From the NCBI RefSeq assembly GCF_000006565.2, contig NC_031480.1:5635170-5699169 (forward strand): a stretch of 64,000 nucleotides of DNA, given 5' to 3'. Position numbers and translations under genes: made by a program. Source of the DNA: Toxoplasma gondii ME49 (lineage: Eukaryota > Apicomplexa > Conoidasida > Eucoccidiorida > Sarcocystidae). Positions within the stretch are counted from its first letter, which is position 1. Every line of letters begins with the position of its first letter. Below are positions 36,276-64,000 of this stretch, piece by piece. The notes under the pieces are model-generated. The model did not search any database and was not told where the DNA came from. It saw only the letters and a program-made list of their open reading frames with translations.

Positions 36276-39200
36276 ATGGTTGGTTTCAAACTCCTCACCC
36301 TCGGCGCCTTCGTGGCAGGTGAACTAACCCTGGTAGGACCGGCCGGGACGATGGCATTCACCGTCCCGAATGCAACAGGAGCGAAACCGCTGGTGACTTC
36401 TGTGAGTGTGAGACCTTCATGGTCATCTGCTCGTCAAAATGCCTTCAGTTCTTCCTCGTCTCGTTCCCAGTCTTCTGTCAGGCCGCACTCCGCGTTTGTG
36501 ACCAATAGACTTGAAACTGCAGGCGAGACAGGAACTCAACACAGAGCGGCCGACTCCGCTGCCGGTGTAGGTGCAGCCCAGTCGGCGTTTCCCATCGATT
36601 TGAGAGGCCAGACTGCTTTCGTTGCTGGTAAGAACATGTGCATGTGTGCCGCAAATCAGGTACGCGCAGATTTCCTCTTGGTAATTCAGTGGGCAGGTCA
36701 GCCTCAGGGGACGATAAGAGTGTTGTTGTCCTTCGGACCGTCTCTCCTTTTCCAGCGTTCCGTCCCAAAAAAAGTTGCAGTCATGTGTTGCAGTTTGGAG
36801 TGTGAAATGGCAATTTTCAATGTACCTAAGATGTATTTGGTGCTTTACGAGACCGTATTTTTTCGTACCAAGCAGGACAATCAGTGCAGCTTCCTCTTCT
36901 TGTATGGTGCCCTGAAGTTCAGAGGACGGCGCATGGTGCTGCAGTGCTCTCTGGTTGCGCCCTAGGAGGGCTCTTCTTCACTTCGCAGTACGCATGCGGC
37001 AGCAGAAAGTTCTTGGTGGGGAACCACCGGAGAGGAAGGGCAAAGTCTGTGAAGATACTGCAGAATTTTTTGCGATTCGGTGGAGGTTCACGGACAGCCA
37101 CTTCTCGGAATGTCACACCGACGTCGGAGTAGACATGAGTCTGCTGTGTGTCTGCCTTGTGTTTTCAGGCGTCGCAGATAGTCACGGATACGGCTGGGCG
37201 ATCGCAAAACACCTCGCGAGCGCTGGGGCGCGTGTGGCTCTAGGCACATGGCCGCCAGTTCTGGGACTCTTTCAGAAGTCTCTTCAGAGCGGAAGACTTG
37301 ACGAGGACCGAAAACTCCCTGATGGTTCCCTTATTGAATTTGCGGGCGTGTATCCCCTCGACGCTGCCTTCGATAAGCCGGAAGATGTGCCGCAAGACGT
37401 AAGTAGTGAGCACGTTTCGATACAAACGCATAAAACAGTTTCCAGTTCTCAGGAGGCTTCGTGTTTTGTTCCAGGGTGTTTCACCATTGTAGTCTTAGCG
37501 TGTCATGCTTCTAGATGTGCCAGTGTTTCTTGTTAAGAGCATGTTTCCCGCGATTCCGTGTGCCCGCGTGGGTGTCAAACGTGTGGTTCATGTGCGAATA
37601 CTTGGTCCGTTGAAACGGAAGACATGGGTGAATTTTGTGTAAAATCTGCGGGATAAAAGGATGCATTGCACCAGATTGTCGGGGAGACATTTCCCAAGGA
37701 CGACTCAGCCCAGCGACACACTGAAGTCCAAACATGCCTGTGGAATCCTTCGGTCTTAGCGCGGCAACCAGAGACGCATGCATGCGGGCGACAAGCACGA
37801 TTTCTCCTTCTTTGTTAATACCATTTGCTTGGACACGATAGTGCGCATTCCTCAGATAAAGGATAACAAACGATACGCGGGCGTGGATGGATACACGATA
37901 AAGGAGGTGGCGGTGAAGGTGAAGCAGGATCTGGGCAACATCGACATTCTCGTGCACTCTCTTGCTAACGGACCGGAGGCAAGTCTGCAAATATGTCTTC
38001 TTTATGTTCTTCTGATCGACTTTTTGTATGGGTTTACTGCTGGCACCTGGAACCACCCAACACCCTGCTTTCCACTCCCTCGTGGGTTGCCAGTTGCTCT
38101 GATGTGTGCTCCAGACGCGTTACTCTGTCAACAGAGTGTTACGGGAAGTGGTGTAGAAAAAAGAGGAGTGTCGTCTGCCGCTGCCTTGACACGCATAGGG
38201 CGGACTGGAAAATACCAATCTAATACGGCAGGCTGTAGTGTTGCATACAGCTGTTGGCACCGTAACACGCGGGCGGCGTACAGGTTGTGGTGTGACTGAT
38301 GACCACCCATAGGGAGAGAAATCTTATTTTGTGTTTTTCGGTGTCTCTTCGCTCTTACAGGTGACAAAGCCCCTTCTGGAGACGAGCAGAAAAGGCTATC
38401 TGGCTGCGTCAAGCAATAGCGCGTATTCCTTCGTCTCGCTCCTCCAGCACTTTGGACCGATCATGAACGAAGGCGGCAGTGCTGTTACTCTTTCTTACCT
38501 GGCTGCGGAACGTGTTGTTCCAGGCAAGTTTCACGACCCTCAGAAACCCCCTTGCCTTGAGGCTTTTTTCAAGATTTCAACGGGGAAAAACTGTGTGCTT
38601 TCCGGAGAAGCGGTGTAAGAGTTAAGAACCTGCGTGTAGAGTGGTGGCGACCAGGGAGACTCTGAACGCAGGGCAAGTAGGGATATCTTTGGGCTGAGGT
38701 TGACTCTCCTCCGTGTAATGTCAGACAAACGAAAGACCGTCTCGTGTTCCCGTCCACCGAAAATGGAGAAGGTGTGAGGGAACGTCTTGAACAAGACATG
38801 TCCCATTCCCAAGGGTGTCGTGTGTGTCTCAAAATCATGTGCAGTTGCCAGTGTCTGCTTGTCATCGGATTTGCTTCCCACAGGGTATGGAGGCGGTATG
38901 AGTAGTGCGAAGGCAGCGCTGGAGTCCGACACCCGCACCCTGGCCTGGGAGGCCGGCCAGAAGTACGGCGTTCGCGTCAATGCCATCAGTGCAGGTCCTT
39001 TGAAGAGCCGTGCTGCCAGTGCGATCGGCAAATCTGGCGAAAAAAGCTTCATCGATTACGCAATCGACTATTCCTATAACAACGCACCTCTAAGAAGAGT
39101 AAGTTGGCAGATGCGACTTCTGTTCGCCGAGACAGCAGCTGTACAGTTCTGAGCTAGTCTTTTGTTGAATTGCCATGTTCATGAGGTCGGGGAGTGTTGT

Positions 39201-42600: not shown

Positions 42601-42766
42601 CATAAATAAAACAGCTGTGTATACGTGAAAGTCAGTTTATCTTGTCCCTCCATGCAATTGATTCCTACGCATGTAACGGTAGGACGCCCTTGCCATATGC
42701 CGAGACACTCCGAAAAAATTCTTGGTTCTGTCTCTTCAGAGAGCGGATAAATCAATTACAACCACG
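39610..42766. other. Intergenic region between ENR and the LRR gene
   Basis: About 3.2 kb, with the ENR 3' UTR at its left and the LRR promoter at its right. A probable acceptor (TCTCTTCAG) ends about 28 bp before the 42767 ATG, suggesting a 5' UTR intron. Nothing else recognised. Confidence 0.4.
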
Positions 42767-43744
42767 ATGGCAAAGACAAAAAGAGAGAAGAAGAAGCAAG
42801 ATCCTGTGGCAGCAGATCAGGTGCTGCTTAGTGGAGAAATACTGAATTCCAGTATTTCGGAAGTCGCCAGAACAGTGGACGGCAGCGGGTATGCCTTTGT
42901 ACGTCTGAATTGTTCCGGGAAAAATATTACGAAGATTCCAGAAGAGATTTCAACTTACGTGCATCTGCGCTACATTGACGTATCTGATAACCATCTAGAT
43001 GATATCCTCCCCCTCACAAAGTTACCTTATGTTCTCTCTCTCAATGCTGCGCGTAACAACATAATCGATATCTCTTGCTTGGCCGATGAGACGTGTTTGC
43101 CGTCCTGCGCTGTGCTAAATTTATCAAATAACTCGATTTCCACGCTCTGTACGATTGCTTTGCCACACTTGGCCAAGCTTACTCTTGATGGGAACCCCTT
43201 TGTCTCGTTCGAAGGTGTCGACAGACTACCTGAGTCTCTGACACATTTAAGCATGAGGGACACGCATCTAAGCACTCTTGCACATTTGCCGTCGCTCCTT
43301 AATCTTGCCTATCTTTCTCTCGCGTACTGCCGTATCGAGTCTCTCACTGACGTTAGCATGCTGGGTGCGCTAAAAGTTCTTGACATTAGTGGGATTCGCC
43401 TTCCCGACTTCGGATCTCTAAAGGTGCTTCTCCTGCTGCCATCTCTTCAAGAGCTCACTGTTTCCTCCATTGATCCGGGAATGTCTGACGAAGATTTCAG
43501 ACAAGAGATCCTGGTGATACTCCGGAGACTGCACAAGCTGAACGGAGTTGACGTTACTCCCGAAGAAAAGAAACGGGCCAAGGCGGTCAAGCTCCACAGA
43601 AAGAGGGAACAAGAGAAGGCCGAGGAGCAAAAGCGAATACACGAAGAGGAAGAAGCAGGCCACGAACCCGAAAAAGAGCCTGCCGATGAAGACAGCCACG
43701 CCGGGGCAGATGTTGCTGATGATAAACAGGAGCAAGACGCTTGA
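42767..43744 (+). CDS. Leucine-rich-repeat protein, LRRC23-like, possible flagellar component
   Basis: A 325-residue single-exon protein. It starts with a Lys-rich segment (MAKTKREKKKQDP), then about seven LRRs of the SDS22-like kind from about residue 45 to 240, visible as NCSGKNITKIPEEI, LRYIDVSDNHLDDI, VLNLSNNSIS and LAYLSLAYCRIESL. After the repeats comes the cap-like segment DEDFRQEILVILRRLHKLNG, followed by a charged helix with TPEEKKRAKAVKLHRKREQE and an acidic Glu/Asp-rich tail. The order of LRRs, a '.DYR.EVL..LR.L..LD' cap and an 'EER..A' helix is that of LRRC23 and related axonemal LRR proteins, so a role in the flagella of male gametes is plausible but inferred. No signal peptide or membrane segment. 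The ATG at 42767 (ACCACGATGG) is preferred to one 45 bp upstream that lies before a probable acceptor. Confidence 0.85.
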   Translation: MAKTKREKKKQDPVAADQVLLSGEILNSSISEVARTVDGSGYAFVRLNCSGKNITKIPEEISTYVHLRYIDVSDNHLDDILPLTKLPYVLSLNAARNNIIDISCLADETCLPSCAVLNLSNNSISTLCTIALPHLAKLTLDGNPFVSFEGVDRLPESLTHLSMRDTHLSTLAHLPSLLNLAYLSLAYCRIESLTDVSMLGALKVLDISGIRLPDFGSLKVLLLLPSLQELTVSSIDPGMSDEDFRQEILVILRRLHKLNGVDVTPEEKKRAKAVKLHRKREQEKAEEQKRIHEEEEAGHEPEKEPADEDSHAGADVADDKQEQDA

Positions 43745-49603: not shown

Positions 49604-51316
49604 TCAATAGACGAGAAAAAATCCCGCACAGACTACAAGGCCGGCAACAGAGCTCAGGAACCCAGACAAGCTCCCAGGTCCTGAACTGGTGCTATCGGTG
49701 CCGGGTACATGGATGCGCACTTTGCAGTTCTGCTTTCCAGAGGAACATTGGAGACAGAGATTCTTCGTCTCAGCTGGGCGTGCGTTCAGGTTCATGGTAT
49801 ACATTGTGTACTTGTCATGTGAACTGTCTTCCGTGAGCGAGGCATCTACCAGAGACGTCAGGCTAGCCTGTGCACTGCAGGAGCCATCGGAGTCGTCAAA
49901 GACTTTCGGAGACCCCGACGAGAACGGAGGGTGCACAACTGTTCCGAGATTGCACTTGAATTTCACGGTATCGGTGGGGGACAGTGTGACTTTCTTCTCG
50001 GTGCCCACCGTGCACTCCTGCACGTCCTCTTCCTCATCATCATCAGTCTCTGTAGATTTAACGCTTATCAGTACTGTGCATGGGTCGGCGGAATCCGAAG
50101 CGCCTTTACATTTATAATACATCCGAGTGTCTTTTCTGCTCACGGTAGGAATGACCAGTCTGTATATATTTGCTTTTTTGTTTCTCTCGTCCCAGTACGC
50201 CCCTGGGAACGTTTTTTCAAGTTCTGCAGTCTCTTTGCAGTCTGCCGACTTACAGAATTGTGGCTTCTCTTCATTTTGCTGTGGCTCCACGGTAGTGCGG
50301 TTGTCACCACATTTAAATACAGCTTCGGTTTCAGACTGGCTAATTTTGATGTAGACGGCATTGTTGGTTGCTGAGCATATTTTAGTGGAATCGTCGGTCG
50401 TCGCCAGGGGCTCTGGTTCGGCCTCGATTGTGACTTTACAAGTCTTTCCAGTCTTGTTGGTGATTTGCTCCACTATCTCTGTTACCCGCGACCTAATTTT
50501 CTCTACAACTGTTTCGATTGCCTGCTTTATCGGTTCTAACTTTTCCCGAATTTTCTCGACAAGTTGGGTGATTGCCTGCTGTATCTCTTCCTGATATTTT
50601 TTGAGTTCCTCGAAGACTTTCTGGAGGAACTCCTTTACGCCTTGTACTTCCAGAAGCTGTTCGACGGCATTTTTGATCTGATCCTTTATGCGTTGTATCG
50701 CCTCTCTGATTTTAGCGATGACTGTGGCCAGCGCCGCCTTTACCTTCGTGACAAATTCTTTGATTTGGTTGAGGACTTCCTTGATTTTGTCCTTCTGCTC
50801 TTTGTCTAGGGCATCAAGTTGTATAATGATCCATACCAGGACAATCTCGACGACGATCAGGCCCGCTGATTTGCACCGATAATAAAGAGTTTCCTTTTTC
50901 TCGCGGTGGAGCGGAAGTGTAAGCCTGTAAATAGGCTCCTCCTCAGAAACCTTGTCCCACTTGGCACCTGGCACAGCGGTTTTCAGGGTGGTCGGTTTCT
51001 TCCAGTTTTCATCCACGTAAATCTTGGGTTCGGGAATTTGCAAAGGAGCAAGGGTTGTGTTCTCGCCACACCGAAAAAGAGCCTCTGTTTTCTCCTGGGT
51101 AAGATTGATGTTAACACCTGCCCAGGATGAACACACTTGATTCTCCGGAACCGTGACGGTCTCCGGAGCCGTCCCTCGCAAAGCGCCAGCGATATCTCCT
51201 ATCCTACCTCCGCCCCCATCATTGCCTGAGGCAGCACTCGATACAATCGCAGAGGCCAAGCCCAGGCAAAACACGAAAAAGACAGAAATCGATTTCAGTG
51301 TTCTCTGCCCCTTCAT
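49604..51316 (-). CDS. SRS surface antigen 1, three SRS domains with a helical insert
   Basis: GPI-anchored surface protein of the SAG1-related family, whose members mediate attachment and interact with host immunity. Single exon, 570 residues, starting at 51316 in a CAAAATGA context; a longer frame to 51379 lacks a signal-peptide start. Residues 1-23 are the signal peptide (SISVFFVFCLGLASA). Domain 1 (about 60-298) has Cys62, Cys83, Cys148 and Cys293 and the hallmark LYYRCKS. Domain 2 (about 312-420) has six cysteines (314, 336, 355, 360, 403, 413) and domain 3 (about 434-538) again has six. The C-terminal 30 residues are a Ser/Gly spacer and hydrophobic tail (SVAGLVVCAGFFLVY), a GPI signal. 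Between Cys148 and Cys293 lies an insert: a hydrophobic stretch (GLIVVEIVLVWIIIQL, 152-167), then about 120 residues of amphipathic Lys/Glu/Ile-rich helix with a single proline. I do not know this insert from other SRS proteins. Confidence 0.93.
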   Translation of the reverse strand: MKGQRTLKSISVFFVFCLGLASAIVSSAASGNDGGGGRIGDIAGALRGTAPETVTVPENQVCSSWAGVNINLTQEKTEALFRCGENTTLAPLQIPEPKIYVDENWKKPTTLKTAVPGAKWDKVSEEEPIYRLTLPLHREKKETLYYRCKSAGLIVVEIVLVWIIIQLDALDKEQKDKIKEVLNQIKEFVTKVKAALATVIAKIREAIQRIKDQIKNAVEQLLEVQGVKEFLQKVFEELKKYQEEIQQAITQLVEKIREKLEPIKQAIETVVEKIRSRVTEIVEQITNKTGKTCKVTIEAEPEPLATTDDSTKICSATNNAVYIKISQSETEAVFKCGDNRTTVEPQQNEEKPQFCKSADCKETAELEKTFPGAYWDERNKKANIYRLVIPTVSRKDTRMYYKCKGASDSADPCTVLISVKSTETDDDEEEDVQECTVGTEKKVTLSPTDTVKFKCNLGTVVHPPFSSGSPKVFDDSDGSCSAQASLTSLVDASLTEDSSHDKYTMYTMNLNARPAETKNLCLQCSSGKQNCKVRIHVPGTDSTSSGPGSLSGFLSSVAGLVVCAGFFLVY

Positions 51317-51424
51317 TTTGCCGACGGAGTAGCTACTGCGGTGCCTGTATGTGTTTGGCGTCGGCACCGCAACAATCAATGTACAAGGTGTACCGCGAAA
51401 AGCGTTAATCCCCTAAATTGTAGT

Positions 51425-51430
51425 GAGACG
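51425..51430 (+). promoter_or_regulatory. GAGACG motif upstream of SRS copy 1
   Basis: TGAGACG (51424-51430) lies 109 bp upstream of the SRS start codon at 51316, on the opposite strand to the gene. It matches the (A/T)GAGACG element known from T. gondii promoters, which works in both orientations. GAGACG is kept at the same distance in SRS copy 3 but is absent from the corresponding region of copy 2. Confidence 0.4.
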
Positions 51431-51451
51431 GAGGAGTTTTCAACACCATTA

Positions 51452-51872
51452 TGCACGGGTCAGATAATTTGATTCACGCCTCACCAGTGCCACCGAAATC
51501 GGTATATTCTGCTTCTGAAGCTGAGACCCTCTGCCCCTCGGCGCTACCACCGCGTCCTGGTGGCCGGCGCGTCCCNNNNNNNNNNNNNNNNNNNNGGCAA
51601 ACATGTGGAAGACTTTACTAGGATCGTTTAGGTAAGTTGACTAGATGCAAGGCTTCCCCATCGTCGTCTGTAAAGGGTAGATTTATGCATGCCCATTTAA
51701 TTCGAATAAATTCCTAGTCAAGCCAATGGAATGAATTACAGTGATTTCGGTTAGTCTAGATATTCAGGATGCTGATTCGCTGATCACCTACCTCGGTGGA
51801 GCACCCACCGGTCTCGAGGGAGCTCCTGAACACTTCCGACTTCAGGATGGGGCTGTTGTGCACAAGTACTAG
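51452..51872 (+). pseudogene. Small spliced reading frame, copy in unit 1, frame-shifted and gapped
   Basis: Homologous to the intact two-exon frame at 62704-63127. The first exon begins MHGSDNLIHASPVPPKSVYS and is interrupted by the 20-N gap (51576-51595). The conserved MWKTLLGSF segment starts at 51603. Where the other copies end this exon TTTAAG|GTAAGT, this copy reads TTTAG|GTAAGT, one base fewer, so the join to the second exon (51768-51872, DADSLITYLGGAPTGLEGAP and on to HKY-stop) is out of frame. It is therefore probably broken here, although the second exon itself is intact. Function unknown. Confidence 0.5.
51576..51595. other. Assembly gap of 20 N
   Basis: Twenty N. In the other units the flanking sequences are separated by 22 bp of GC-rich DNA, so the gap is probably only a couple of bases longer than drawn and hides nothing large. 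Confidence 0.9.
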
Positions 51873-53989
51873 AGTGGACTTGCAGGAATGAGGTGAGTTG
51901 AAGCATCGGCTCACATCGCTCTACGCCTTGTGCAACGAGTAAAAACCGAAGAGTGCGTTATTCCACTTAATTTTTTTAGACACACTGCTGTCCAAGAACG
52001 TGCGGACCCCTTTATTGTCGGGTGGCCGTCATAGGGGCAGCACGCCATGCAGAGGCCACAGATGTGTTTTAGGCCTAAATGAGATTTTTTATGTTTCGCG
52101 GCAACTCTGCGCGGTAACAAGCTCGTCGTCACACGGAACCACTTAGCTAAATCAGGTAACGTTGACAGAATGGAAGTAACAGCCTTGTGCAACGTTCCTT
52201 AGAGCTGTCGTAGATCCACCACTGCAAACCGTCGAGAGTGTCAATCAAGGGGACACAAGTTCCACTGCCGTAGGACGACAGATTTGTGTGGGTCATTTCG
52301 GTGATAATGGTGGCGCAGGTAACAGGACCGCATATAGAAAGTACCATGCATTGTTAAGCGGTTTCACCAGCAGCACATCTTCGTAATAAAACACGCTCTT
52401 AGTCGTTCTATTTGCCGATTGCAAGCAGCAACGCAATGAGGTCATCAGCAATGACACGGAACTGACGATGACAGGGCGTAATACATGCAGGAATTGAGGA
52501 AGCAAGTTACATTGTTTGAATCCGAGGACACTGTCCAAACAGAAAGAAAACAACTATCGACGCAGACTGCTTCCCAGTCTGATCCAAACATTTGTTGATA
52601 CTAACACGTCGCCGCTGCCTCTACAGTCGTACTCAAGACCAATCAATCTCAAATGCGAAGCCAACGGAGAACACACTGCCATTCACAAATAGAAGAGGAC
52701 CTCAGAGCTGAAGGCTCATGCAAAAATACTGATGTTTCATCGCAGCCCTGAAAGGCTCAGTTCAGCTAGCACTTCGTTCTGCAAAATGCAGATCGTCGCC
52801 ACATTCTTTTGTTTTCTGCTTTCCTCGCGGCCAACGCAAGGGTGTCAGCCAAGCAAGACACGACGATTCAAAGGGCGCGAGCATAATCTCTTGACACATT
52901 ACCATTCACCAGAAGGGGAAAGAAACCGTTAGCCATTTGTACGACACAGGGAGGGGAGGAGGAGAGTCACGAGAGACGACACTTTTCAAGAAGAAAGACA
53001 CACCACATGCAAACAACCCACAGTGAGTCTCATGACCTGCACGAAGAGGAAGCCGATAGAGTCGAAACAGTAACGATCGACGTGCGATAAATTTTCACAA
53101 CTACACGTAACCTGAGACTACCAAGGGTAACCCCTAAGCTCTTGCTTGATACACTGTCGGGCTCGGGAAGGGAATCCGAAGCTTCGATCCGAGAAGAACA
53201 TGCCTACCATCCAGCTGACGGGCTTTTAGGAAAAATTATATACTTCAGGATGTCCAAAACACCAGAACAGATGTTGATATAAGACACTATCACCAACCCA
53301 GCCACTGACTCCGGTCATGAACTGTTGACAAATTAACAATCGGGTAGCCACTGGTTCACAATCAACTTCCTTGTTTCGACAGTTCACCGTCACATGTAAT
53401 ACATGGGCTGGTTTACACTAGTTATTAGCGTTGAAGCGTTCGCGTGCAACAATCAGAAGCTGCCTGATAATTCGAGAGGTTGTGAGGCGGGACGGAAAAG
53501 CTCAAATCTGTACTCGACAACATGGAGAGTGCAGAATCCTGCGTTTCCTCAAGTCCGTAAACAGACTGAAGGAGGCGATTTTGTAGTCTGCAGTGGCGTC
53601 GGCCCGCGTTATGTTCTATGGGTATAGGGTGTCCTGTCCGATACTGCCCGCATGCCAAGTAGGGAGAACACTTGAAGGAATGCGTGTGGACAAGGTGCAA
53701 ATCTACGAGTAACGTCGTATCTCCTCGTCCACGGTTGCCAGAAACTATCTGATTCTTGAGAGCCGTCAAACACACACGGGGTCTCGGGCCCGGTGCCTGC
53801 CATCCGTGGTGACTAGGCGGTAGCATGGCAGCTCGAGAACAAAGACATGGAAATGAGGTCCTATTGACGCAAACACTTTGACCATTGGGTCGACTCACAT
53901 AGAATGGAACCGCCTCCAGACGGCCATTTTTGGTCGCGCCTCCGTAACGTTTGGGCCCGGTCCCTTACAGGCGTTCCAATGGTTGAGTC
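51873..53989. repeat. Intergenic part of array unit 1
   Basis: Non-coding as far as I can tell. It consists of the rest of the small-frame block (to about 52340), a divergent middle (about 52340-52930), a highly conserved block (52930-53620) and the start of the SRS 3' flank block (53620-53989). The 93-residue minus-strand open frame at 51911-52192 is also kept in the other units, but the DNA around it is equally similar, so conservation is not evidence of coding. Confidence 0.6.
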
Positions 53990-54109
53990 TAGCCAGATGG
54001 CTTTGTTGGCGCTAACATTAGACACTGAGGGCCCAACCGCAAGATGACGCAGATTACAGGGTAACACTGCGGAGGGAATACCGAAGTAGGTACCAGTGAT
54101 TACATGCAA

Positions 54110-55837
54110 TCAATAGACGAGAAAAAATCCCGCACAGACTACAAGGCCGACAACAGAGCTCAGGAACCCAGACAAGCTCCCAGGTCCTGAACTGGTGCTA
54201 TCGGTGCCGGGTACATGGATGCGCATTTTGCAGTTCTGCTTTCCAGAGGAACATTGGAGACAGAGATTCTTCGTCTCAGCTGGGCGTGCGTTCAGGTTCA
54301 TGGTATACATTGTGTACTTGCCATGTGAACTGTCTTCCGTGAGCGAGGCATCTACCAGAGACGTCAGGCTAGCCTGTGCACTGCAGGAGCCATCGGAGTC
54401 GTCAAAGACTTTCGGAGACCCCGACGAGAACGGAGGGTGCACAACTGTTCCGAGATTGCACTTGAATTTCACGGTATCGGTGGGGGACAGTGTGACTTTC
54501 TTCTCGGTGCCCACCGTGCACTCCTGCACGTCCTCTTCCTCATCATCATCAGTCTCTGTAGATTTCACGTTTATCAGTACTGTGCATGGGTCGGCGGAAT
54601 CCGAAGTGCCTTTACATTTATAATACATCCGAGTGTCTTTTCTGCTCACGGTAGGAATGACCAGTCTGTATATATTCGCTTTTTTGTTTCTCTCGTCCCA
54701 GTACGCCCCTGGGAACGTTGTTTCAAGTTCTGCAGTATCGTTGCAGTCTATCGATTCACAGAATTTTGGTTTATCTGTGTTCTGCGATGGCTCAAGAGTA
54801 GTGAGGCCGTCGCCACACTTGAATACGGCCTCGCGTTCCCCTTTGCCAAGTTTGATGTACACTGGATGCTTGGCATCTGAGCATGTTTTTTCGTTACCGG
54901 GATCTCCAGCCAGAGGTTCTTCCTTTGCTACGATTTTCACCTTACACGTGACTCCTGTAGCGTCGGCTACGTTCTTCAATAACTCTGTTATCAGTTCCCA
55001 TCTTTCGGCTAGTTTTTGGCTGATCAGGTTCTTTACGTAGTCGACCAAACCCTTAATTGCTTCAACAATTGCTTTGAGGTGTTTATCTATTTCCGGAATG
55101 TGTTGTTTAATGTAGTTGTAGAGATCCTCGATTGCCTGCACCACTTCTTCCCTTTCCAGAAGGTCATGGACAGTTTGGTTGGCGAGTTGGAGGAGCGCCT
55201 TTATGGCTTTTATAATTTTTACCTTTCTTTCAATGATTCCGGCAATGACCAACGTTATCACTCGCACTAAATCGTAATACCGACTGAGGGTTTCCAAGAT
55301 TTTCTTTCTCGCTTCTTCGCTCGCCTCGTGATATTGTTTGATGAACCATATCAAGCTGATCTCCGCCACAATCAAGGCCTCCGATTTACATCGATAATAG
55401 AGTGTTTCCGCTTTCTTGCGGTGAGGCGGAAGTGTAAGCTTGTAGGCGCCCTTCGTTTCGTCAATCGCTGCCCACTCGGCACCTGGCACCGCGTCTTTTA
55501 GGAGAGTTGCTGACCTGCAGTCCTCTTCCAGGTAAACCTTCTCATCAGGATTTTGTAGAGGAGCCAGTACCGTCTTCGGACCACATTGAAAACGAGCCTC
55601 TGTTTGGTCCTGGGTAAGATTGATGCTAATGCCTGCCCAGGATGAGCATACGTTGATTTCCGGCCCGTCGACGGCCTCTCTACCAGATTGCCTCCCCCGC
55701 AGTGCACCAGCCAGGTCTCCTAGCTCACTGCCGCCTGAATCATTAACTGAGGCAACAATCGATGAAGGCGCAGAGGCCAAGCCCAGGCAAAACACAAAGA
55801 AGACAGAAATTGTCTTCAGTGGTCGTTGTCTCTTCAT
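54110..55837 (-). CDS. SRS surface antigen 2, divergent helical insert
   Basis: Same architecture as copy 1: signal peptide, domain 1 with insert, domains 2 and 3, GPI signal; 575 residues, start at 55837 (CAAAATGA context). Domain 1 has Cys64, Cys85, an extra Cys107 (EEDCRS), Cys150 and Cys298. The insert (about 151-297) begins with the hydrophobic EALIVAEISLIWFIKQY and then differs from copies 1 and 3 at most positions while keeping its helical character (KVKIIKAIKALLQLANQ, HLKAIVEAIKGLVDYVK). The first half of domain 2 (TCSDAKHPVYIKLGKGERE) matches copy 3, whereas the second half (TTFPGAYWDERNKKANIYR) matches copy 1. Domain 3 and the GPI region are nearly identical to copy 1. The upstream region lacks the GAGACG element of the other copies, so regulation may differ. 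Likely surface-exposed; ligand unknown. Confidence 0.93.
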   Translation of the reverse strand: MKRQRPLKTISVFFVFCLGLASAPSSIVASVNDSGGSELGDLAGALRGRQSGREAVDGPEINVCSSWAGISINLTQDQTEARFQCGPKTVLAPLQNPDEKVYLEEDCRSATLLKDAVPGAEWAAIDETKGAYKLTLPPHRKKAETLYYRCKSEALIVAEISLIWFIKQYHEASEEARKKILETLSRYYDLVRVITLVIAGIIERKVKIIKAIKALLQLANQTVHDLLEREEVVQAIEDLYNYIKQHIPEIDKHLKAIVEAIKGLVDYVKNLISQKLAERWELITELLKNVADATGVTCKVKIVAKEEPLAGDPGNEKTCSDAKHPVYIKLGKGEREAVFKCGDGLTTLEPSQNTDKPKFCESIDCNDTAELETTFPGAYWDERNKKANIYRLVIPTVSRKDTRMYYKCKGTSDSADPCTVLINVKSTETDDDEEEDVQECTVGTEKKVTLSPTDTVKFKCNLGTVVHPPFSSGSPKVFDDSDGSCSAQASLTSLVDASLTEDSSHGKYTMYTMNLNARPAETKNLCLQCSSGKQNCKMRIHVPGTDSTSSGPGSLSGFLSSVVGLVVCAGFFLVY

Positions 55838-58230
55838 TTTGGCGACAGAGTAGCTACCGCGAGGCCTCTTTTAGGTTTGGCGTCGCCACCACAGTAAATG
55901 GGCAGACTGTTTCATTAAAACAGTTAATTTTTGATTTTGGCAGGACAATTCGCTTCCAGCGAGTTCCAACCGTACGCGCGTGTGACAAGGAAACAGCGAC
56001 AGTCTTAGTTACAAGGTTTCGCTTTCATTCACGCCTCACTGGAACACTGGGGACACCGACCCTCTGCCCCGGGGCGCTATCAGGAACTGGGTGAGCTGCG
56101 CGTCGACGCAGCACGCGGCAGACAAAGCCGGAAACTTGTCCGTGATGGCACCAGAATCACTTCCTCATGTGTGGAACTACATCATTTGCGTCAGCGAAAA
56201 GCAAATTATACATTGCCGCTGTGGAATGACATTTCAATAAATATACCGGGATGAGCTCCAATGATCATTAAAATCAGAATCAATCCACCAGTTTAAATTT
56301 CAGCGCTCCCTCTCAGCCTTCATGCTTCCGGGCGCCGATCGCTGGTTGACGCCTTGGTGGAGCACCGATTTCGAACTGCTGGATACTTCTGCCTCGAGAA
56401 TGGGGCTGGCGCACAATTTCTAGGGTAAACTTCCGGGACTAAAATGAGATAGAGCGGTTTTTCATGTCGTTCCAAGTTTGTTGCATCGGTCAAACGCTGA
56501 ACGCTCAATATTCACTTGACTTCTTTAGATGTAGTACTACCAAGGTGTGTGCGGTGCACCTTTGTTGTCCGACGGCAGTCATTGTGTTAGCCCGCCAGGC
56601 AAGAACCCCAGATGCGTGTATGCTGGGAGTCAATGACACTTCTTAAGCTTCCTGACCGAACAGAGTGGACTTCTTGACTATGTTTTTGCGAGTAAAAAGC
56701 AACTGCATGGAACTGCCTCCTCCAGCACGATGTGGAGCATCTGCTCGACAACTGTGACGAGTCACACGCTCGCCGTGAAAGCGAATCAACAAAGTACATC
56801 CTGGAATGTTGACAGAGTGAAAGAACCAACCTTGGGAAACACACCCGAAGGTGTCGTCGTTGAGTCCATCGGTGCAGACCGACGAGCGTCCCAACCATGA
56901 GGACACCAGATCCACGACATTTTGTAAACAGATTCCTGTAGCCCCTTTCTTCTGCCTTGATAGTGGCGAAGCTGAACATGAATGCACAAAGAAAGCACCA
57001 TGTGTTATTCGCTCGTTTCAGGAACAGCACCTTCTCAGAAGAAAACATAGTCCGAGGCATGCCCTTTTCCCGATCGCAAGCAACGCGGCAATGAAGCCAC
57101 TGCAATGACACCGGAGCTCCACGGCGATGTGCAACTATACATCAACTGAGACACCAGGAAACACGATTGAGCCTGAGGGACATGAACAAGCGAGAGGATA
57201 ACGATTATGAATACAGTCTGTCTTTCAATCTGCTTCGCATTTCGACTGATATTAGCACCCCGTTTCTTTTCGAACCGCACTCAAGACCGAGCAATTCCAC
57301 GTGCAAAGGTACCTGAGAAAAACTGGAGCACCCACACTCCCATAGACAAATCGCAGAGAAGACCAGAGATCGCCGCCCATTCGGCATAGAAACGTGTTCC
57401 CGTCCAGCAGTGAAGGCCGAATTAAGCTGTTCAATACCTACTGCGAGCTGCAGGTCGTCGCCTCATTCCTTTCATTCCTATCACGCTCGTGGCCAAAACA
57501 TGAGTGTCGGCCGAGTAGTAAGAGACGACAACGTAATTGACGCCAGAAAAAACTCCTTACACATTATCCATCACCAGACCAACAAGGAAACCGTTAGCTG
57601 TTAGTACGACACAGGGAGGGGAGGAGGCGAGTCACGAGACTCGACACCTTTCAAGAAGAAAGACACACCGCATGCATACAACTCACAGTGAGGCTCCGGA
57701 CCTGCACGAAGAGGAAGCCGATAGAGTCGAAGCAGTAACGATGGGCGTGCGATAATTTTTCACAACTACACGTAACCTGAGACTACCAAGGGTAACCCCC
57801 AAGGTCATGGTTGATACACTGTCGGGCTCGGGAAAGGAATCCGAAGCTTCGATCCGAGAAGAACATGCCTACCATCCAGCTGACGGGCTTTTAGGAAAAA
57901 ATATATACTTCAGGATGTCCAAAACACCAGAACAGATGTTGATATAAGACACTATCACCAACCCAGCCACTGACTCCGGTCATGAACTGTTGACAAATTA
58001 ACAATCGGGTAGCCACTGGTTCACAATCAACTTCCTTGTTTCGACAGTTCACCGTCACATGTAATACATGGGCTGGTTTACACTAGTCAATAGCGTTGAC
58101 GCGTTCGCGTGCAACAATCAGGAGAATCTGCCTGATAATTCGAGAAGTTGTGAGGCGGGAGGGGAAAACTCAAATCTGTACTCGACAACATGGAGAGTGC
58201 AGAATCCTGCGTTTTTCTCAGTCTGAAAAC
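55838..58230. repeat. Intergenic part of array unit 2, with degenerate small-frame relic
   Basis: It starts with the SRS copy 2 promoter. At about 56040-56420 lies a strongly diverged copy of the small-frame block: the stretch GGTGGAGCACC and the final stop are recognisable but the reading frame is lost. About 57450-58230 is the well-conserved block shared with the other units. No intact gene seen. Confidence 0.6.
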
Positions 58231-58250
58231 NNNNNNNNNNNNNNNNNNNN
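58231..58250. other. Assembly gap of 20 N that probably hides an SRS gene
   Basis: The left flank matches the unit at the point equivalent to 60285 and the right flank matches the point equivalent to 62785. In the intact unit these are separated by about 2.5 kb containing a whole SRS gene and its promoter. The 20 N are therefore a placeholder for a collapsed or missing stretch, not a measured gap. Confidence 0.85.
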
Positions 58251-58322
58251 TGCCCCTCGGCGCTACCACCGCGTCTTGGTGGCCGGCGCGTCCCGGCAGC
58301 GCGGGCTAGAGAGACCGGCAAC

Positions 58323-58593
58323 ATGTGGAAGACCTTACTAGGATCGTTTAAGGTAAGTTGACTAGATGCAAGGCTTCCCCATCGTCGTCTGTAAAGGGTA
58401 GATTTATGCATGCCCATTTAATTCGAATAAATTCCTAGGCAAGCCAATGGAATGAATTACAGTGATTTCGGTTAGTCTAGATATTCAGGATACTGATTCG
58501 CTGATCACCTACCTCGGTGGAGCACCCACCGGTCTCGAGGGAGCTCCTGAACACTTCCGACTTCAGGATGGGGCTGTTGTGCACAAGTACTAG
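58323..58593 (+). CDS. Small spliced reading frame, copy in unit 3, partly hidden by the gap
   Basis: The end of exon 1 (MWKTLLGSFK, 58323-58352, with open frame upstream as far as the gap) and exon 2 (58489-58593) join GT-AG in phase 0 to end DTDSLITYLGGAPTGLEGAP and on to VVHKY-stop. The sequence is the same as the copy at 62704-63127 over this stretch. The 5' part is lost in the assembly gap. I do not recognise the protein and coding status is unproven. Confidence 0.4.
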
Positions 58594-60856
58594 AGTGGAC
58601 TTGCAGGAATGAGGTGAGTTGAAGCATCGGCTCACATCGCTCTACGCCTTGTGCAACGAGTAAAAACCGAAGAGTGCGTTATTCCACTCAATTTTTTTAG
58701 ACACACTGCTGTCCAAGAACGTGCGGACCCCTTTATTGTCGGGTGGCCGTCATAGGGGCAGCACGCCATGCAGAGGCCACAGATGTGTTTTAGGCCTAAA
58801 TGAGATTTTTTATGTTTCGCGGCAACTCTGCGCGGTAACAAGCTCGTCGTCACACGGAACCACTTAGCTAAATCAGGTAACGTTGACATAATGGAAGTAA
58901 CAGCCTTGTGCAACGTTCCTTAGAGCTGTCGTAGATCCACCACTGCAAACCGTTGAGAGTGTCAATCAAGAGGACACAAGTTCCACTGCCGTAGACGACA
59001 GATTTGTGTGGGTCATTTCGGTGATAATGGTGGCGAAGGTAACAGGGCAGCAGAAACAAAGTATCACGCAGTATTCACCGGTTTCACCAACAGCCCCCCC
59101 TAAGAATAAAACATGCTCGTCATCGTTGTTTGTGCGGATTACAAGCTACAACGTAAAGAAGTCATTGGCAATGATACCAAACTGACAATGTCCGTGTGCT
59201 CTTTGTACCTGAATTGGGAAAGCAAAATACCATTTAAGTCTGAGGGCACTGTCGGAACATCAAGGAAAGGAATATCGGCACACGCTCTTTTTCAGTCTCA
59301 TCTACACTTCTGCTGATATTGGCGCATCATCGCTGAATCTCTAGTAGTACGCAAGACCAGTCACTCTCACATGAAAGACACCCGACAACACACTGCCATT
59401 CACGAATCGAAGACGACCCCAGAGCTGAAGGCACATCTAAAACCGAATCATGTTTCCTGCATGTATTGAAAGTAGAGCTCAGCTCACACATACTTCCACA
59501 AACTGCTGATCGTCGCCTCAATCCTTTCTTTCCTATCACGCTCGTGGCCAATACCTGAGTGTCAGCCGAGTAGTAAAAGACGACAACGTAATTGACGCCA
59601 GAAAAAACTCCTTACACATTATCCATCACCAGACCAACAAGGAAACCGTTAGCTGTTAGTACGACACAGGGAGGGGAGGAGGCGAGTCACGAGAGACGAC
59701 ACCTTTCAAGAAGAAAGACACACCGCATGCATACAACCCACAGTGAGGCTCCGGACCTGCACGAAGAGGAAGCCGATAGAGTCGAAGCAGTAACGATGGG
59801 CGTGCGATAATTTTTCACAACTACACGTAACCTGAGACTACCAAGGGTAACCCCCAAGGTCATGGTTGATACACTGTCGGGCTCGGGAAAGGAATCCGAA
59901 GCTTCGATCCGAGAAGAACATGCCTACCATCCAGCTGACGGGCTTTTAGGAAAAAATATATACTTCAGGATGTCCAAAACACCAGAACAGATGTTGATAT
60001 AAGACACTATCACCAACCCAGCCACTGACTCCGGTCATGAACTGTTGACAAATTAACAATCGGGTAGCCACTGGTTCACAATCAACTTCCTTGTTTCGAC
60101 AGTTCACCGTCACATGTAATACATGGGCTGGTTTACACTAGTCAATAGCGTTGACGCGTTCGCGTGCAACAATCAGGAGAATCTGCCTGATAATTCGAGA
60201 GGTTGTGAGGCGGGAGGGGAAAACTCAAATCTGTACTCGACAACATGGAGAGTGCAGAATCCTGCGTTTTCTCAAGTCTGAAAACAGAGTGAAGGAAGCG
60301 ATTTTGCAGTCTGCAGTGGCGTCGGCCCGCGTTGTCCTGCGGGGACAGGCTCCTGTCCCATACCGCTCGCATGCGAAGTAGGGCGAACACTTGAACGAAT
60401 GCATGTGTACGACGTGCAAATCTACGAGTACGTCACATGGTAGAGGCATGAACGTTCAACGTCGTGTCTCCTCGTCCACGGTTGCCAGAAGCTATCTGAT
60501 TCTTGAGAGCCGTCAAACACACACGGGGTCTCGGGCCCGGTGCCTGCCGTCCGTCGTGTCTAGGCGGTAGCATGGCAGCTCGAGAAGAAAGACATGGAAA
60601 TGCGGTCCTATTGACGCAAACACTTTGACCATTAGGTCGACTCACATAGAATGGAACCGCCTCCAGACGGCCATTTTTGGTCGCGCCTCCGTAACGTTTG
60701 AGTCCGGTCCCTTACAGGCGTTCCAATGGTTGAGTCTAGCCAGATGGCTTTGCTGGCGCTAACATTAGACACTGAGGGCCCAACCGCAAGATGACGCAGA
60801 TTACAGGGTAACACTGCGGCGGGAATACCGAAGTAGGTACCAGTGATTACATGCAA
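58594..60856. repeat. Intergenic part of array unit 3
   Basis: Rest of the small-frame block (to about 59065), a divergent middle (about 59065-59500), the conserved block (about 59500-60430) and the SRS 3' flank block (60430-60856). No gene called; recurring short open frames are explained by the duplication. Confidence 0.6.
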
Positions 60857-62569
60857 TCAATAGACGAGAAAAAATCCCGCACAGACTACAAGGCCGACAA
60901 CAGAGCTCAGGAACCCAGACAAGCTCCCAGGTCCTGAACTGGTGCTATCGGTGCTTGGTACATGGATGCGCATTTTGCAGTTCTGCTTTCCAGAGGAACA
61001 TTGGAGACAGAGATTCTTCGTCTCAGCTGGGCGTGCGTTCAGGTTCATGGTATACTTTGTGTACCTATCATGTGAACTGTCTTCCGTGAGCGAGGCATCT
61101 ACCAGAGAAGTCAGGCTAGCCGGTGCACTGCAGGAGCCATCGGAGTCGTCAAAGACTTTCGGAGTTGCTGTGGAGAATGATGGCTGCACAACTGTTCCGA
61201 GATTGCACTTGAATTTCACGGTATCGGTGGGGGACAGTGTGACTTTTTTCTCGGTGCCCACCGTGCACTCCTGCACGTCCTCTTCCTTATCATGGTCAGT
61301 CTCTGTAGATTTTACGCTTATCAGTACTGTGCATGGGTCGGCTGAACCCGAAGCGCCTTTACACTTATAATACATCCGTGTGTCTTTTCTCTCCTCAGTA
61401 GGAATGACCAGTCTGTATATATTTGCATGTTTGTTTCTATCATCCCAATACGGTTTTTGAAATGCTTGGGCAAGCTCTGTAGTCTCTTTGCAGTCTGCCG
61501 ATTTACAGAATTTTGGATGATGTGCGTCCTGCGTTGGCTCAAGAGTAGTGAGGCCGTCGCCACACTTGAATACGGCCTCGCGTTCCCCTGTGCCAAGTTT
61601 GATGTACACTGGATGCTTGGAATCTGAGCATGTTTTTTCGCTACCGGGATCTTCAGCCAGTGGCTCTGGTTCGGCAACGATTGTGACTTTACAGGTCTTT
61701 CCTGTCTTGTTCGTGATTTGCTCCACTATCTTTGTTACTTGCAGCTTAATTTTTTCCACAACTCTTGCGATTGCCTGCTTTATCGGTTCCAACTTTTCCT
61801 TAATTTTCGCAACAAGGTCCGCGATTGCCTGCTGTATCAGTTCCTGATTCTCTTTGATTGCCTCATACACTTTCTCGAGAAACTCTTGTACTTCTTTCAC
61901 TTTCAAAAGCTCTTGGACGGCCTTTTTGATCTGTTCCTTTATGTATTGTATTGCCTTTCTGATTTTATCGATGACTGCAGCCAATGCCTCCTTTACCTTC
62001 GTGACAAATGCTTTGATTTGCTCGAGGGCTTCCTTGATTTGTTCCTTCTGCTGTTCTTCTAGGGCATCAAGTTGTATAATGATCCATACCAGGACAATCT
62101 CGACGACGATCAGGCCCGCTGATTTGCACCGATAATAAAGAGTTTCCTTTTTCTCGCGGTGGAGCGGAAGTGTAAGCCTGTAAATACGCTCCTCTTCATT
62201 AACTTTGTCCCACTTGGCACCTGGCACAGCTGTTTGCAGGGCGGTCGGTTTCTTCCAGTTTTCATCCACGTAAATCTTCTGTTCGGGAATTTGCAAAGGA
62301 GCGAGGGTTGTGTTCTCGCCACACTGAAAAAGAGCCTCTGTTTTCTCCTGGGTAAGATTGATGTTAACACCTGCCCAGGTTGAGCACACTTGCTTCTCCG
62401 GAACCTCGACGGTCCCCGTAGGCGTCCCTCGCAAAGCGCCAGCGGTATCTCCTATCCTATCTCCGCCCCCATCATTACCTGAGGCAGCACCCGATGCAAT
62501 CGCAGAGGCCAAGCCCAGGCAAAACACGAAAAAGACAGAAATCGATTTCAGTGTTCTTTGCCCCTTCAT
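60857..62569 (-). CDS. SRS surface antigen 3, three SRS domains with a helical insert
   Basis: 570 residues, start at 62569 in the same context as copy 1; signal peptide, domain 1 with insert, domains 2 and 3 and GPI tail as in copy 1. The N-terminal region and insert are copy-1-like, with the same hydrophobic stretch after LYYRCKS. Many surface positions of the helices are replaced (for example KIRKAIQYIKEQIKKAVQ against KIREAIQRIKDQIKNAVE in copy 1) while the Ile/Leu/Val core is kept. Domain 2 starts copy-2-like (TCSDSKHPVYIKLGTGERE), returns to copy-1-like CKSADCKET and then has private changes (AQAFQKPYWDDRNKH). Domain 3 has its own VVQPSFSTATPKVF but is otherwise shared. A GAGACG motif lies 109 bp upstream, as in copy 1. 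Expected at the parasite surface. Confidence 0.93.
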   Translation of the reverse strand: MKGQRTLKSISVFFVFCLGLASAIASGAASGNDGGGDRIGDTAGALRGTPTGTVEVPEKQVCSTWAGVNINLTQEKTEALFQCGENTTLAPLQIPEQKIYVDENWKKPTALQTAVPGAKWDKVNEEERIYRLTLPLHREKKETLYYRCKSAGLIVVEIVLVWIIIQLDALEEQQKEQIKEALEQIKAFVTKVKEALAAVIDKIRKAIQYIKEQIKKAVQELLKVKEVQEFLEKVYEAIKENQELIQQAIADLVAKIKEKLEPIKQAIARVVEKIKLQVTKIVEQITNKTGKTCKVTIVAEPEPLAEDPGSEKTCSDSKHPVYIKLGTGEREAVFKCGDGLTTLEPTQDAHHPKFCKSADCKETTELAQAFQKPYWDDRNKHANIYRLVIPTEERKDTRMYYKCKGASGSADPCTVLISVKSTETDHDKEEDVQECTVGTEKKVTLSPTDTVKFKCNLGTVVQPSFSTATPKVFDDSDGSCSAPASLTSLVDASLTEDSSHDRYTKYTMNLNARPAETKNLCLQCSSGKQNCKMRIHVPSTDSTSSGPGSLSGFLSSVVGLVVCAGFFLVY

Positions 62570-62703: not shown

Positions 62704-63127
62704 ATGCACGGAGCAGATAATTTGATTCACGCCTCTCCAGTGCCACCGAAATCGGTATATTCTGCTTCTGAAGCTGAGACCCTCTGCCCCTCGGCGCTAC
62801 CACCGCGTCTTGGTGGCCGGCGCGTCCCGGCAGCGCGGGCTAGAGAGACCGGCAACATGTGGAAGACCTTACTAGGATCGTTTAAGGTAAGTTGACTAGA
62901 TGCAAGGCTTCCCCATCGTCGTCTGTAAAGGGTAGATTTATGCATGCCCATTTAATTCGAATAAATTCCTAGGCAAGCCAATGGAATGAATTACAGTGAT
63001 TTCGGTTAGTCTAGATATTCAGGATACTGATTCGCTGATCACCTACCTCGGTGGAGCACCCACCGGTCTCGAGGGAGCTCCTGAACACTTCCGACTTCAG
63101 GATGGGGCTGTTGTGCACAAGTACTAG
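62704..63127 (+). CDS. Small spliced reading frame repeated in the SRS array, unknown
   Basis: The clearest copy of a small two-exon frame that starts in the SRS promoter region and runs the other way. Exon 1 (62704-62886) starts MHGADNLIHASPVPPKSVYS and ends MWKTLLGSFK before GTAAGT. Exon 2 (63023-63127) follows ATATTCAG and reads DTDSLITYLGGAPTGLEGAP, then EHFRLQDGAVVHKY and a stop. The join is phase 0 and gives 95 residues; a shorter start at 62857 would give 44. Exon 2 has the look of a true protein C terminus, so this may be the duplicated tail of a larger gene. I do not recognise the family, and no signal peptide or membrane segment is seen. Coding status is uncertain. Confidence 0.45.
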
Positions 63128-64000
63128 AGTGGACTTGCAGGAATGAGGTGAGTTGAAGCATCGGCTCACATCGCTCTACGCCTTGTGCAACGAGTAAAAA
63201 CCGAAGAGTGCGTTATTCCACTTAATTTTTTTAGACACACTACTGTCCAAGAACGTGCGGACCCCTTTATTGTCGGGTGGCCGTCATAGGGGCAGCACGC
63301 CATGCAGAGGCCACAGATGTGTTTTAGGCCTAAATGAGATTTTTTATGTTTCGCGGCAACTCTGCGCGGTAACAAGCTCGTCGTCACACGGAACCACTTA
63401 GCTAAATCAGGTAACGTTGACATAATGGAAGTAACAGCCTTGTGCAACGTTCCTTAGAGCTGTCGTAGATCCACCACTGCAAACCGTCGAGAGTGTCAAT
63501 CAAGAGGACACAAGTTCCACTGCCGTAGACGACAGATTTGTGTGGGTCATTTCGGTGATAATGGTGGCGAAGGTAACAGGGCAGCAGAAACAAAGTATCA
63601 CGCAGTATTCACCGGTTTCACCAACAGCACCTCTTCGTAAGGAAACACGCTCTTATTCGTTCTATTTGCCGATTGCAAACACCAACGCAATGAGGTCATC
63701 AGCAATGACGCGGAACTGATGATGAAAGGACTCTCCTTTCCATTCTGATCCACACGTTTGTTGGCATTAACGCATCACCGCTGCCTCTCCTGTCGAATAC
63801 ATGGCCCGTCACTTTCCCATGCAAAGACACCGGACAACACACCGTCATTCACATACCGGAGAGGACCCCAGATGTGATGGCTCGCCCGAGAAATAATGAC
63901 GTCTTATGTCATCCCTGAAGGTTGCGTTGAACTCGCGCGTCGTTCTGCAAATGGCAGATCGTCGACGCATTCCTTTGTTTCCTGCCTTGCTCGTGGCCAA
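63128..64000. repeat. Start of the next intergenic part of the array
   Basis: It remains similar to 51873-52830 right up to the window end, so the array continues beyond this window. No gene called. Confidence 0.6.

What the first reader, a model, noticed from the sequence alone, without database searches (positions are those of the whole stretch)
49604..62569. SRS antigens with a long helical insert inside the first SRS domain
In all three copies the last two conserved cysteines of domain 1 (Cys148 and Cys293 in copy 1) are separated by 145 residues, while the matching pair in domain 2 (Cys403, Cys413) is ten apart. The extra sequence is a 16-residue hydrophobic stretch followed by about 120 residues of Lys/Glu/Ile/Leu-rich amphipathic helix with hydrophobic residues every 3-4 positions. 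It is flanked by intact SRS landmarks on both sides (LYYRCKS before, TCKV after), so it is an insertion into a loop and not a fusion at a domain end. The SRS fold is a beta sandwich. A long helical arm projecting from it would be a different kind of surface protein, possibly a coiled-coil stalk, an oligomerisation element or a lipid-binding helix. I know of no described SRS member with this layout, but I cannot search.
Basis: partly seen in the sequence, partly recalled or inferred. Interest (0 to 1): 0.9.

Follow-up and report, generated by a model that had tools for sequence, protein, structure and literature searches.

The report
Helical arm inside Toxoplasma surface antigen
In a surface protein family (SRS59) reported from the cat-gut stage of the toxoplasmosis parasite, one antigen domain is split by about 140 extra residues that are predicted to form a long helical arm, which would likely let the protein grip a partner, as a comparable insertion does in a malaria parasite protein.

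Summary
The window is from Toxoplasma gondii; the three minus-strand genes are SRS59B (copies 1, 3) and SRS59K (copy 2). Each has three SRS domains. In domain 1 the last two cysteines lie 145, 148 and 145 residues apart, against 9-33 in 55 loops from other SRS loci of this genome. The flank before the insert matches the Pfam SRS profile. AlphaFold2 closes the beta sandwich round the insert and predicts a hydrophobic helix plus two long helices, at low confidence (pLDDT 47-60 in B, 35-50 in K). Sequence supports a real coding arm: B and K arms are 23% identical yet keep the hydrophobic/polar pattern (94 of 118 columns; shuffle maximum 80), and among five B arms 4 of 36 inner-face columns vary against 47 of 74 outer ones. 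Six of ten T. gondii database models and H. hammondi SRS59K carry the whole insert; H. hammondi SRS59J and a Neospora relative have a 37-residue loop. [quoted passage not shown] My reading is a docking arm; function is untested. The genes are already named; my paper searches found no description of the arm.

The parts
49604..51316 (-). SRS59B copy 1, 570 aa, three SRS domains
   Evidence: open frame; closest to T. gondii SRS59B P0001
50441..50872 (-). insert of copy 1, residues 149-292
   Evidence: between Cys148 and Cys293
50813..50866 (-). hydrophobic helix, residues 151-168
   Evidence: AlphaFold2 secondary structure, pLDDT about 50; KD19 2.34
50657..50803 (-). long amphipathic helix 1, residues 172-220
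   Evidence: AlphaFold2, low confidence; period about 3.62
50459..50641 (-). long amphipathic helix 2, residues 226-286
   Evidence: AlphaFold2, low confidence; period about 3.63
54110..55837 (-). SRS59K (copy 2), 575 aa
   Evidence: open frame; 99% identical to SRS59K P0005
54947..55387 (-). insert of copy 2, residues 151-297
   Evidence: between Cys150 and Cys298; helices 153-169, 174-226, 230-271, 280-294, pLDDT 35-50
60857..62569 (-). SRS59B copy 3, 570 aa
   Evidence: open frame; 82% identical to copy 1
61694..62125 (-). insert of copy 3, residues 149-292
   Evidence: between Cys148 and Cys293; 74% identical to the copy 1 insert
58231..58250 (.). 20-N assembly gap where a further SRS59B unit probably lies (inferred)
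   Evidence: the right side equals the upstream region of copy 3 (300 of 300 bases) up to 216 bases before the start codon; the left side matches the region downstream of copy 3 at 98%

Best explanation
Three tandem Toxoplasma gondii SRS59 surface-antigen genes (two SRS59B, one SRS59K) have 145-148 residues from the last-but-one to the last cysteine of their first SRS domain, where 55 loops from other SRS loci of this genome have 9-33, and the extra stretch is predicted to fold as a helical hairpin that likely works as a docking arm for a partner protein. Shown by sequence: position of the insert, open frame in all three copies, SRS flanks, and in the B copies a conserved hydrophobic stripe and a variable outer face. 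Predicted at low confidence: a hydrophobic helix straight off the strand before the insert, then two long helices (the longer 61 residues, about 9 nm if straight); that they run antiparallel is inferred from the short turn between them. Inferred: because the last strand of domain 1 runs from the insert to domain 2, the arm would leave the pole of domain 1 away from domain 2, the membrane-distal end if the domains are strung head to tail as in known SRS proteins. [quoted passage not shown]
Against: Arm pLDDT is low (47-60 in B, 35-50 in K; pTM 0.51 for both), so helix packing and orientation are not established. Helical periodicity is weak in K (19 of 1000 shuffles reach it). No partner is known. 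The Pf41 insertion is predicted only about 40% helical and follows the last cysteine of D1 in that family, whereas here it lies before the last cysteine, so the match is of topology only. The B helices also show a charge layout seen in lipid-binding helices. The variable outer face fits antigenic display as well as docking. Two partial or odd database models lack part of the segment (P0004, P0009).
Confidence: 0.45

Rival explanations
1. Variable display spike: the hairpin is a self-packed helical scaffold, conserved inside and variable outside, that presents changing surfaces to cat antibodies or to enterocyte receptors, in the style of (not kin to) trypanosome VSG.
For: Outer face varies in 47 of 74 columns against 4 of 36 inside among 5 B rows. 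The B arm is the most variable of the six regions compared across 6 B sequences (mean identity 0.737, against 0.890 N-terminus, 0.915 D1, 1.0 hydrophobic part, 0.806 D1 end plus D2, 0.927 D3). Three distinct complete B arms exist in this genome (copies 1, 3 and contig C1956).
Against: dN/dS in the three B arm pairs is below 1 (0.29-0.80), so no positive selection is shown. The K arm (0.862) is not more variable than its neighbours, and its outer-face excess is weaker.
Confidence: 0.25
2. Lipid-binding arm: the amphipathic helices lie on a membrane, as in apolipoproteins, and help membrane contact or fusion.
For: In the B helices Lys/Arg flank the hydrophobic face (mean 100-107 degrees) and Asp/Glu sit opposite (141-151 degrees), permutation p 0.003 or less in 4 of 4 helices of copies 1 and 3. 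Weak Pfam matches to apolipoprotein families.
Against: Apolipoprotein 32 of 90 bits and ApoLp-III 28.9 of 36.3 fail their cut-offs in the copy 1 insert and score less in copy 3; neither is among the 22 families listed for the K insert. The charge layout has p below 0.05 in only 1 of 3 K helices. The hydrophobic face of the B helices is narrow (mean 32-41 degrees), which I read as closer to helix bundles.
Confidence: 0.15
3. Passive spacer: the helical hairpin only lifts or spaces the antigen above the coat.
For: Long predicted helices; sequence is free while pattern is kept.
Against: It projects from a loop of domain 1, not between domains or next to the C-terminal anchor end, so it would add no height to the chain (inference).
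Confidence: 0.09
4. The hydrophobic helix is a membrane span, so that part of the protein lies across a membrane.
For: KD19 of 2.34 in B exceeds a usual 1.6 threshold (threshold recalled).
Against: It carries a glutamate (E157) invariant in 8 of 8 rows. No window in the K insert exceeds 1.47. SRS domains lie on both sides.
Confidence: 0.03
5. Retained intron or gene-model artefact.
For: Of 10 T. gondii database models (P0001-P0009, P0013), one (P0004, VEG) leaves the frame and skips the end of D1 and the hydrophobic helix, and one (P0009, ARI, partial) runs from the first arm helix straight into D2.
Against: Six of the 10 keep the whole insert between both cysteines (P0001, P0002, P0003, P0005, P0006, P0008); P0007 begins and P0013 ends inside it. 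P0004 keeps the amphipathic arm. Frames are open in all three window copies, and pattern and face conservation are those of coding sequence.
Confidence: 0.03

Closest known systems
T. gondii SRS59B / SRS59K (database names; P0001-P0009, P0013)
   Same: These are the genes of the window. To copy 1 over its full length: P0001 100%, P0002 85%, P0003 81%, P0005 (SRS59K) 64%; P0005 is 99% identical to copy 2. Same insert.
   Different: Nothing in kind. Window alleles differ by a few residues from the database ones; the searches found no paper that describes the insert.
SRS59J of H. hammondi (P0011) and the Neospora caninum 490-aa SRS protein (P0012)
   Same: SRS proteins of the same group: 53% identity over 49% and 48% over 52% of copy 1.
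   Different: The same D1 loop is 37 residues Cys to Cys in both, without the helical arm.
Plasmodium falciparum Pf41 (6-Cys, inserted domain-like region)
   Same: Related beta-sandwich fold; [quoted passage not shown] starts with a helix off the strand; a long helix docks Pf12 by hydrophobic contacts (PMC4587554, PMC8930183).
   Different: Predicted about 40% helical, the rest disordered; insertion lies after the last cysteine; two domains; no sequence kinship seen.
Other T. gondii SRS proteins (SAG1, SporoSAG, BSR4, SAG3)
   Different: Short C5-C6 loops in the 55 loops measured in this genome; loops of the solved structures themselves were not measured.
Apolipoproteins / apolipophorin III; trypanosome VSG
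   Same: Long amphipathic helices; charge layout (B only); for VSG, helical core with variable surface (recalled).
   Different: Family cut-offs not met for the apolipoproteins; VSG not tested; no kinship claimed.

Membership tests
SRS (SAG, PF04092) superfamily | match to the SRS domain profile | tested here: met
   copies 2 and 3: 84 and 73.6 bits, cut-off 21; D1 fragments of copies 1 and 2: 24.6 and 30.8 bits. Against: PF04092 is not among the best 25 of 72 families listed for whole copy 1, and its D2-D3 fragment gave no PF04092 match at E up to 0.5
SRS (SAG, PF04092) superfamily | SRS beta-sandwich fold | tested here: met
   [not shown]
SRS (SAG, PF04092) superfamily | six cysteines per domain | tested here: inconclusive
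   D2 and D3 have six each; D1 has four (copies 1, 3) or five (copy 2)
SRS (SAG, PF04092) superfamily | signal peptide and GPI-type hydrophobic C terminus | tested here: inconclusive
   hydrophobic N and C ends (KD19 2.0-2.2); cleavage and anchor not tested
[quoted passage not shown]
   strands 142-150 and 293-299 flank the insert in the predicted model, 144-152 and 298-304 in K; Pf41 layout from PMC4587554 section 13
Pf41-type inserted arm | arm needed to bind a partner 6-Cys/SRS protein | not testable with these tools
   needs protein binding assays
Pf41-type inserted arm | sequence kinship with Pf41 | tested here: inconclusive
   [not shown]
Apolipoprotein (PF01442) / ApoLp-III (PF07464) | family score cut-off | tested here: not met
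   copy 1 insert 32 of 90 and 28.9 of 36.3 bits; copy 3 23.5 and 22; copy 2 not listed
Baculo_PEP_C (PF04513) | family score cut-off across the copies | tested here: not met
   insert alone: copy 1 40.8 (above the cut-off of 38), copy 3 30.8, copy 2 15.3; whole copy 1 35: read as shared helical composition
Trypanosome VSG-like spike | VSG fold or sequence | not tested
   analogy only, from recall

The most novel reading that the evidence does not exclude
A coccidian SRS antigen has been turned into a new kind of surface protein: a beta-sandwich antigen carrying a long helical spike with a fixed core and a changing outer face, used by cat-stage merozoites or pre-gametes for partner recognition, with SRS59B arms diversified and the SRS59K arm held constant as two halves of a system.
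Probability: 0.2. Interest if true: 0.82.

Novelty: new variant of a known kind. Interest (0 to 1): 0.6.

Why it matters
T. gondii has about 110 SRS antigens and the roles of the many expressed in the cat stage are unknown; it has been suggested in print that they may act in gamete recognition, as Plasmodium 6-Cys proteins do (PMC4340605 passages). An arm in the same loop as the Pf41 docking element, in an antigen reported from the cat stage, gives a concrete testable part for that idea. It also shows an SRS loop expanded into what is predicted to be a helical module, kept with a conserved inner face and, in SRS59B, a freely changing outer face.

Tried and rejected
Considered and rejected: end fusion of a separate domain (SRS sequence on both sides). 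Retained intron (see rivals). Kinship to apolipoprotein or baculovirus PEP families (scores follow helical composition and drop in copy 2). Insert spread to other genes: of 12 matches (copy 1 insert) and 5 (copy 2 insert) at E up to 10 in this genome, those with E below 0.01 (7 and 4) are all SRS59 copies or fragments. Insert built from recent short tandem repeats: Tandem Repeats Finder gave 0 rows on the copy 1 insert; two-copy repeats of 45 and 54 bases (76% and 74%) and one of 24 bases (79%) occur in the two B inserts, none in K. A protein search drawn from the K insert found 4 proteins at E up to 1 among 1730 candidates, all SRS59K. The search with the ten-row alignment A1 added only P0013 and a distant Besnoitia SRS protein (P0014, 26% over 44%, no arm seen by eye).

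Limits: the two full-length protein searches scored only the 7995 and 7996 candidates sharing most words; no Neospora, Besnoitia or Sarcocystis genome was searched; no RNA or proteomic reads. That I know of no description in print rests on search listings only; I opened six papers, in outline, one section or passages (PMC4587554, PMC8930183, PMC10781626, PMC11122372, PMC4340605, PMC9309271), and none whole. The main SRS family survey (PMC3509429) is not held, so I cannot say whether it mentions the arm. The H. hammondi records P0010 and P0011 carry the source label UNVERIFIED_CONTAM. Rows used for faces and invariants were 5 B (copies 1 and 3, P0002, P0003, P0008) and 3 K (copy 2, P0006, P0010); P0001 and P0005 were left out as near-duplicates, P0004, P0007, P0009 and P0013 as odd or partial, and contig C1956 was not added.
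Full report
What it is. The window lies at 5635170-5699169 of a 7.09 Mb contig in a 65.3 Mb, 1959-contig genome, and its proteins match Toxoplasma gondii records: copy 1 is a near-exact match to SRS59B P0001 (100% after rounding), copy 3 is 82% identical to copy 1, and copy 2 is 99% identical to SRS59K P0005. The strain is not determined. All three genes are uninterrupted frames on the minus strand.

Anatomy. Each protein has three SRS domains. In domain 1 the strand before the insert ends in LYYRCKS and the strand after it begins TCKV; between these cysteines are 144 residues (copies 1, 3) or 147 (copy 2). In 55 C5-C6 loops from 29 of 30 other SRS loci of this genome the spacing is 9-33 (57 pattern matches, two of them N-terminal cysteines left out; the loci hold the best-scoring of 150 scored matches and so favour compact domains). 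The insert begins with a hydrophobic stretch (KD19 2.34 in B; no window in the K insert exceeds 1.47) followed by about 120 residues of amphipathic sequence.

What the insert is predicted to be. AlphaFold2 gives helices 151-168, 172-220 and 226-286 for B, and 153-169, 174-226, 230-271 and 280-294 for K. Confidence is low (pLDDT 47-60 and 35-50), from alignments of 10 and 14 rows, so only the helical character and a turn near residue 220-226 are taken as likely; I saw no coordinates, so antiparallel packing is inferred. Sequence tests agree for B: hydrophobicity has a helical period (peak power 18.3 in copies 1 and 3, 0 of 1000 shuffles reach it); K is weaker (8.8; 19 of 1000 reach it). Within single B helices the period is 3.62-3.66, near eleven residues per three turns.

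Is it under selection as a folded arm? B (copy 1) and K arms are 23% identical but agree in hydrophobic/polar class in 94 of 118 columns (92-94 for the four B rows tried; shuffle mean about 62, maximum 80). Twenty-seven positions of residues 149-286 are invariant over 5 B and 3 K rows, 19 of them Ile, Leu or Val. On the B helices 4 of 36 inner-face columns vary against 47 of 74 outer columns (0 of 10000 permutations reach this); in 3 K rows, on the B frame, 4 of 36 against 21 of 74 (344 of 10000); in all 8 rows 25 of 36 against 69 of 74 (16 of 10000). Faces were set by the hydrophobic residues of copy 1, and such residues may be slow to change anywhere. Pairwise dN/dS of the arm is 0.29-0.80 within B (3 pairs) and 0.55-1.01 between B and K (3 pairs). 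This is what a folded coding helical element would show, and it argues against an intron. Of 10 T. gondii database models, six carry the whole insert; P0004 leaves the frame and skips the hydrophobic helix but keeps the rest; P0009, a partial model, lacks most of the arm; P0007 begins and P0013 ends inside it.

History. The array contains copies 1-3, more B-type pieces on short contigs C1956, C1059, C1113 and C1223, and beyond the window edge two decayed copies: one with an arm of a third type (27% identical to copy 1 over residues 126-239) and one of SRS59J type without the arm. H. hammondi SRS59K has the arm (84% identical over the region searched); H. hammondi SRS59J and the Neospora relative have a 37-residue loop. 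The simplest account is that the arm arose in this array in the Toxoplasma/Hammondia line before B and K parted; loss in Neospora is not excluded. Copies 1 and 2 are 98-100% identical in DNA from about codon 391 to the end but 47-53% in most of the arm, while copies 1 and 3 are alike in the first half: a mosaic that points to gene conversion.

How it may work. SRS59 is named among merozoite-expressed SRS proteins and a peptide antibody to 'SRS59B or K' exists, whose peptide is found in the C terminus of window copies 1 and 2 (PMC10781626, passages); SRS59K is listed as co-regulated by AP2XI-2 and AP2XII-1 (PMC11122372, passages). [quoted passage not shown] replacing them abolishes Pf12 binding, and the long helix of the insert packs by hydrophobic contacts on Pf12 domain 2 (PMC4587554 abstract and section 13; PMC8930183 passages). 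I therefore judge a docking arm most likely (0.45), a variable display spike next (0.25), then lipid binding (0.15), for which the Lys/Arg-flank, Asp/Glu-centre layout of the B helices is genuine support. That the arm leaves the far end of domain 1 is inferred from strand order and from the head-to-tail arrangement of known SRS proteins (PMC9309271 passages).

Novelty. The genes are known by name and the fold is known. The helical intradomain arm is a new variant of a known kind: my searches listed no description, with the caveats that the listed papers were not read through and that the main family survey is not held.

Noticed in passing
window 58231-58250: The 20-N gap sits where a further SRS59B unit should be: the right side equals the upstream region of copy 3 and the left side matches its downstream region at 98%, so about 2.5 kb with one more copy is probably missing from the assembly.
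   Followed up: partly
L048:1301-2627 (beyond the window): A decayed SRS59 copy with a third, divergent arm type; its domain 3 looks nearly identical to that of copy 3 (by eye).
   Followed up: partly
L048:4389-5836 (beyond the window): A decayed SRS59J-type copy without the arm; H. hammondi has an open SRS59J (P0011).
   Followed up: partly
window 51627-51926, 58348-58647, 62882-63181: A 300-base block 99% identical among three places; at the first and last it begins about 310 bases before an SRS59B start, so it may hold a shared promoter.
   Followed up: no
window 49604-51316 and 54110-55837: Copies 1 and 2 are almost identical over the last third and very different before it, a sharp mosaic suggesting gene conversion.
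   Followed up: yes
copy 2 residue 107 (window 55517-55519): SRS59K domain 1 has an odd, possibly unpaired cysteine where SRS59B has tryptophan.
   Followed up: no
window 35838-37536: Frames resembling exons of an apicoplast enoyl-ACP reductase (recognised from recall, not searched).
   Followed up: no
window 42683-43744: Frame of a leucine-rich-repeat-like protein with a Lys/Glu-rich tail (by eye).
   Followed up: no
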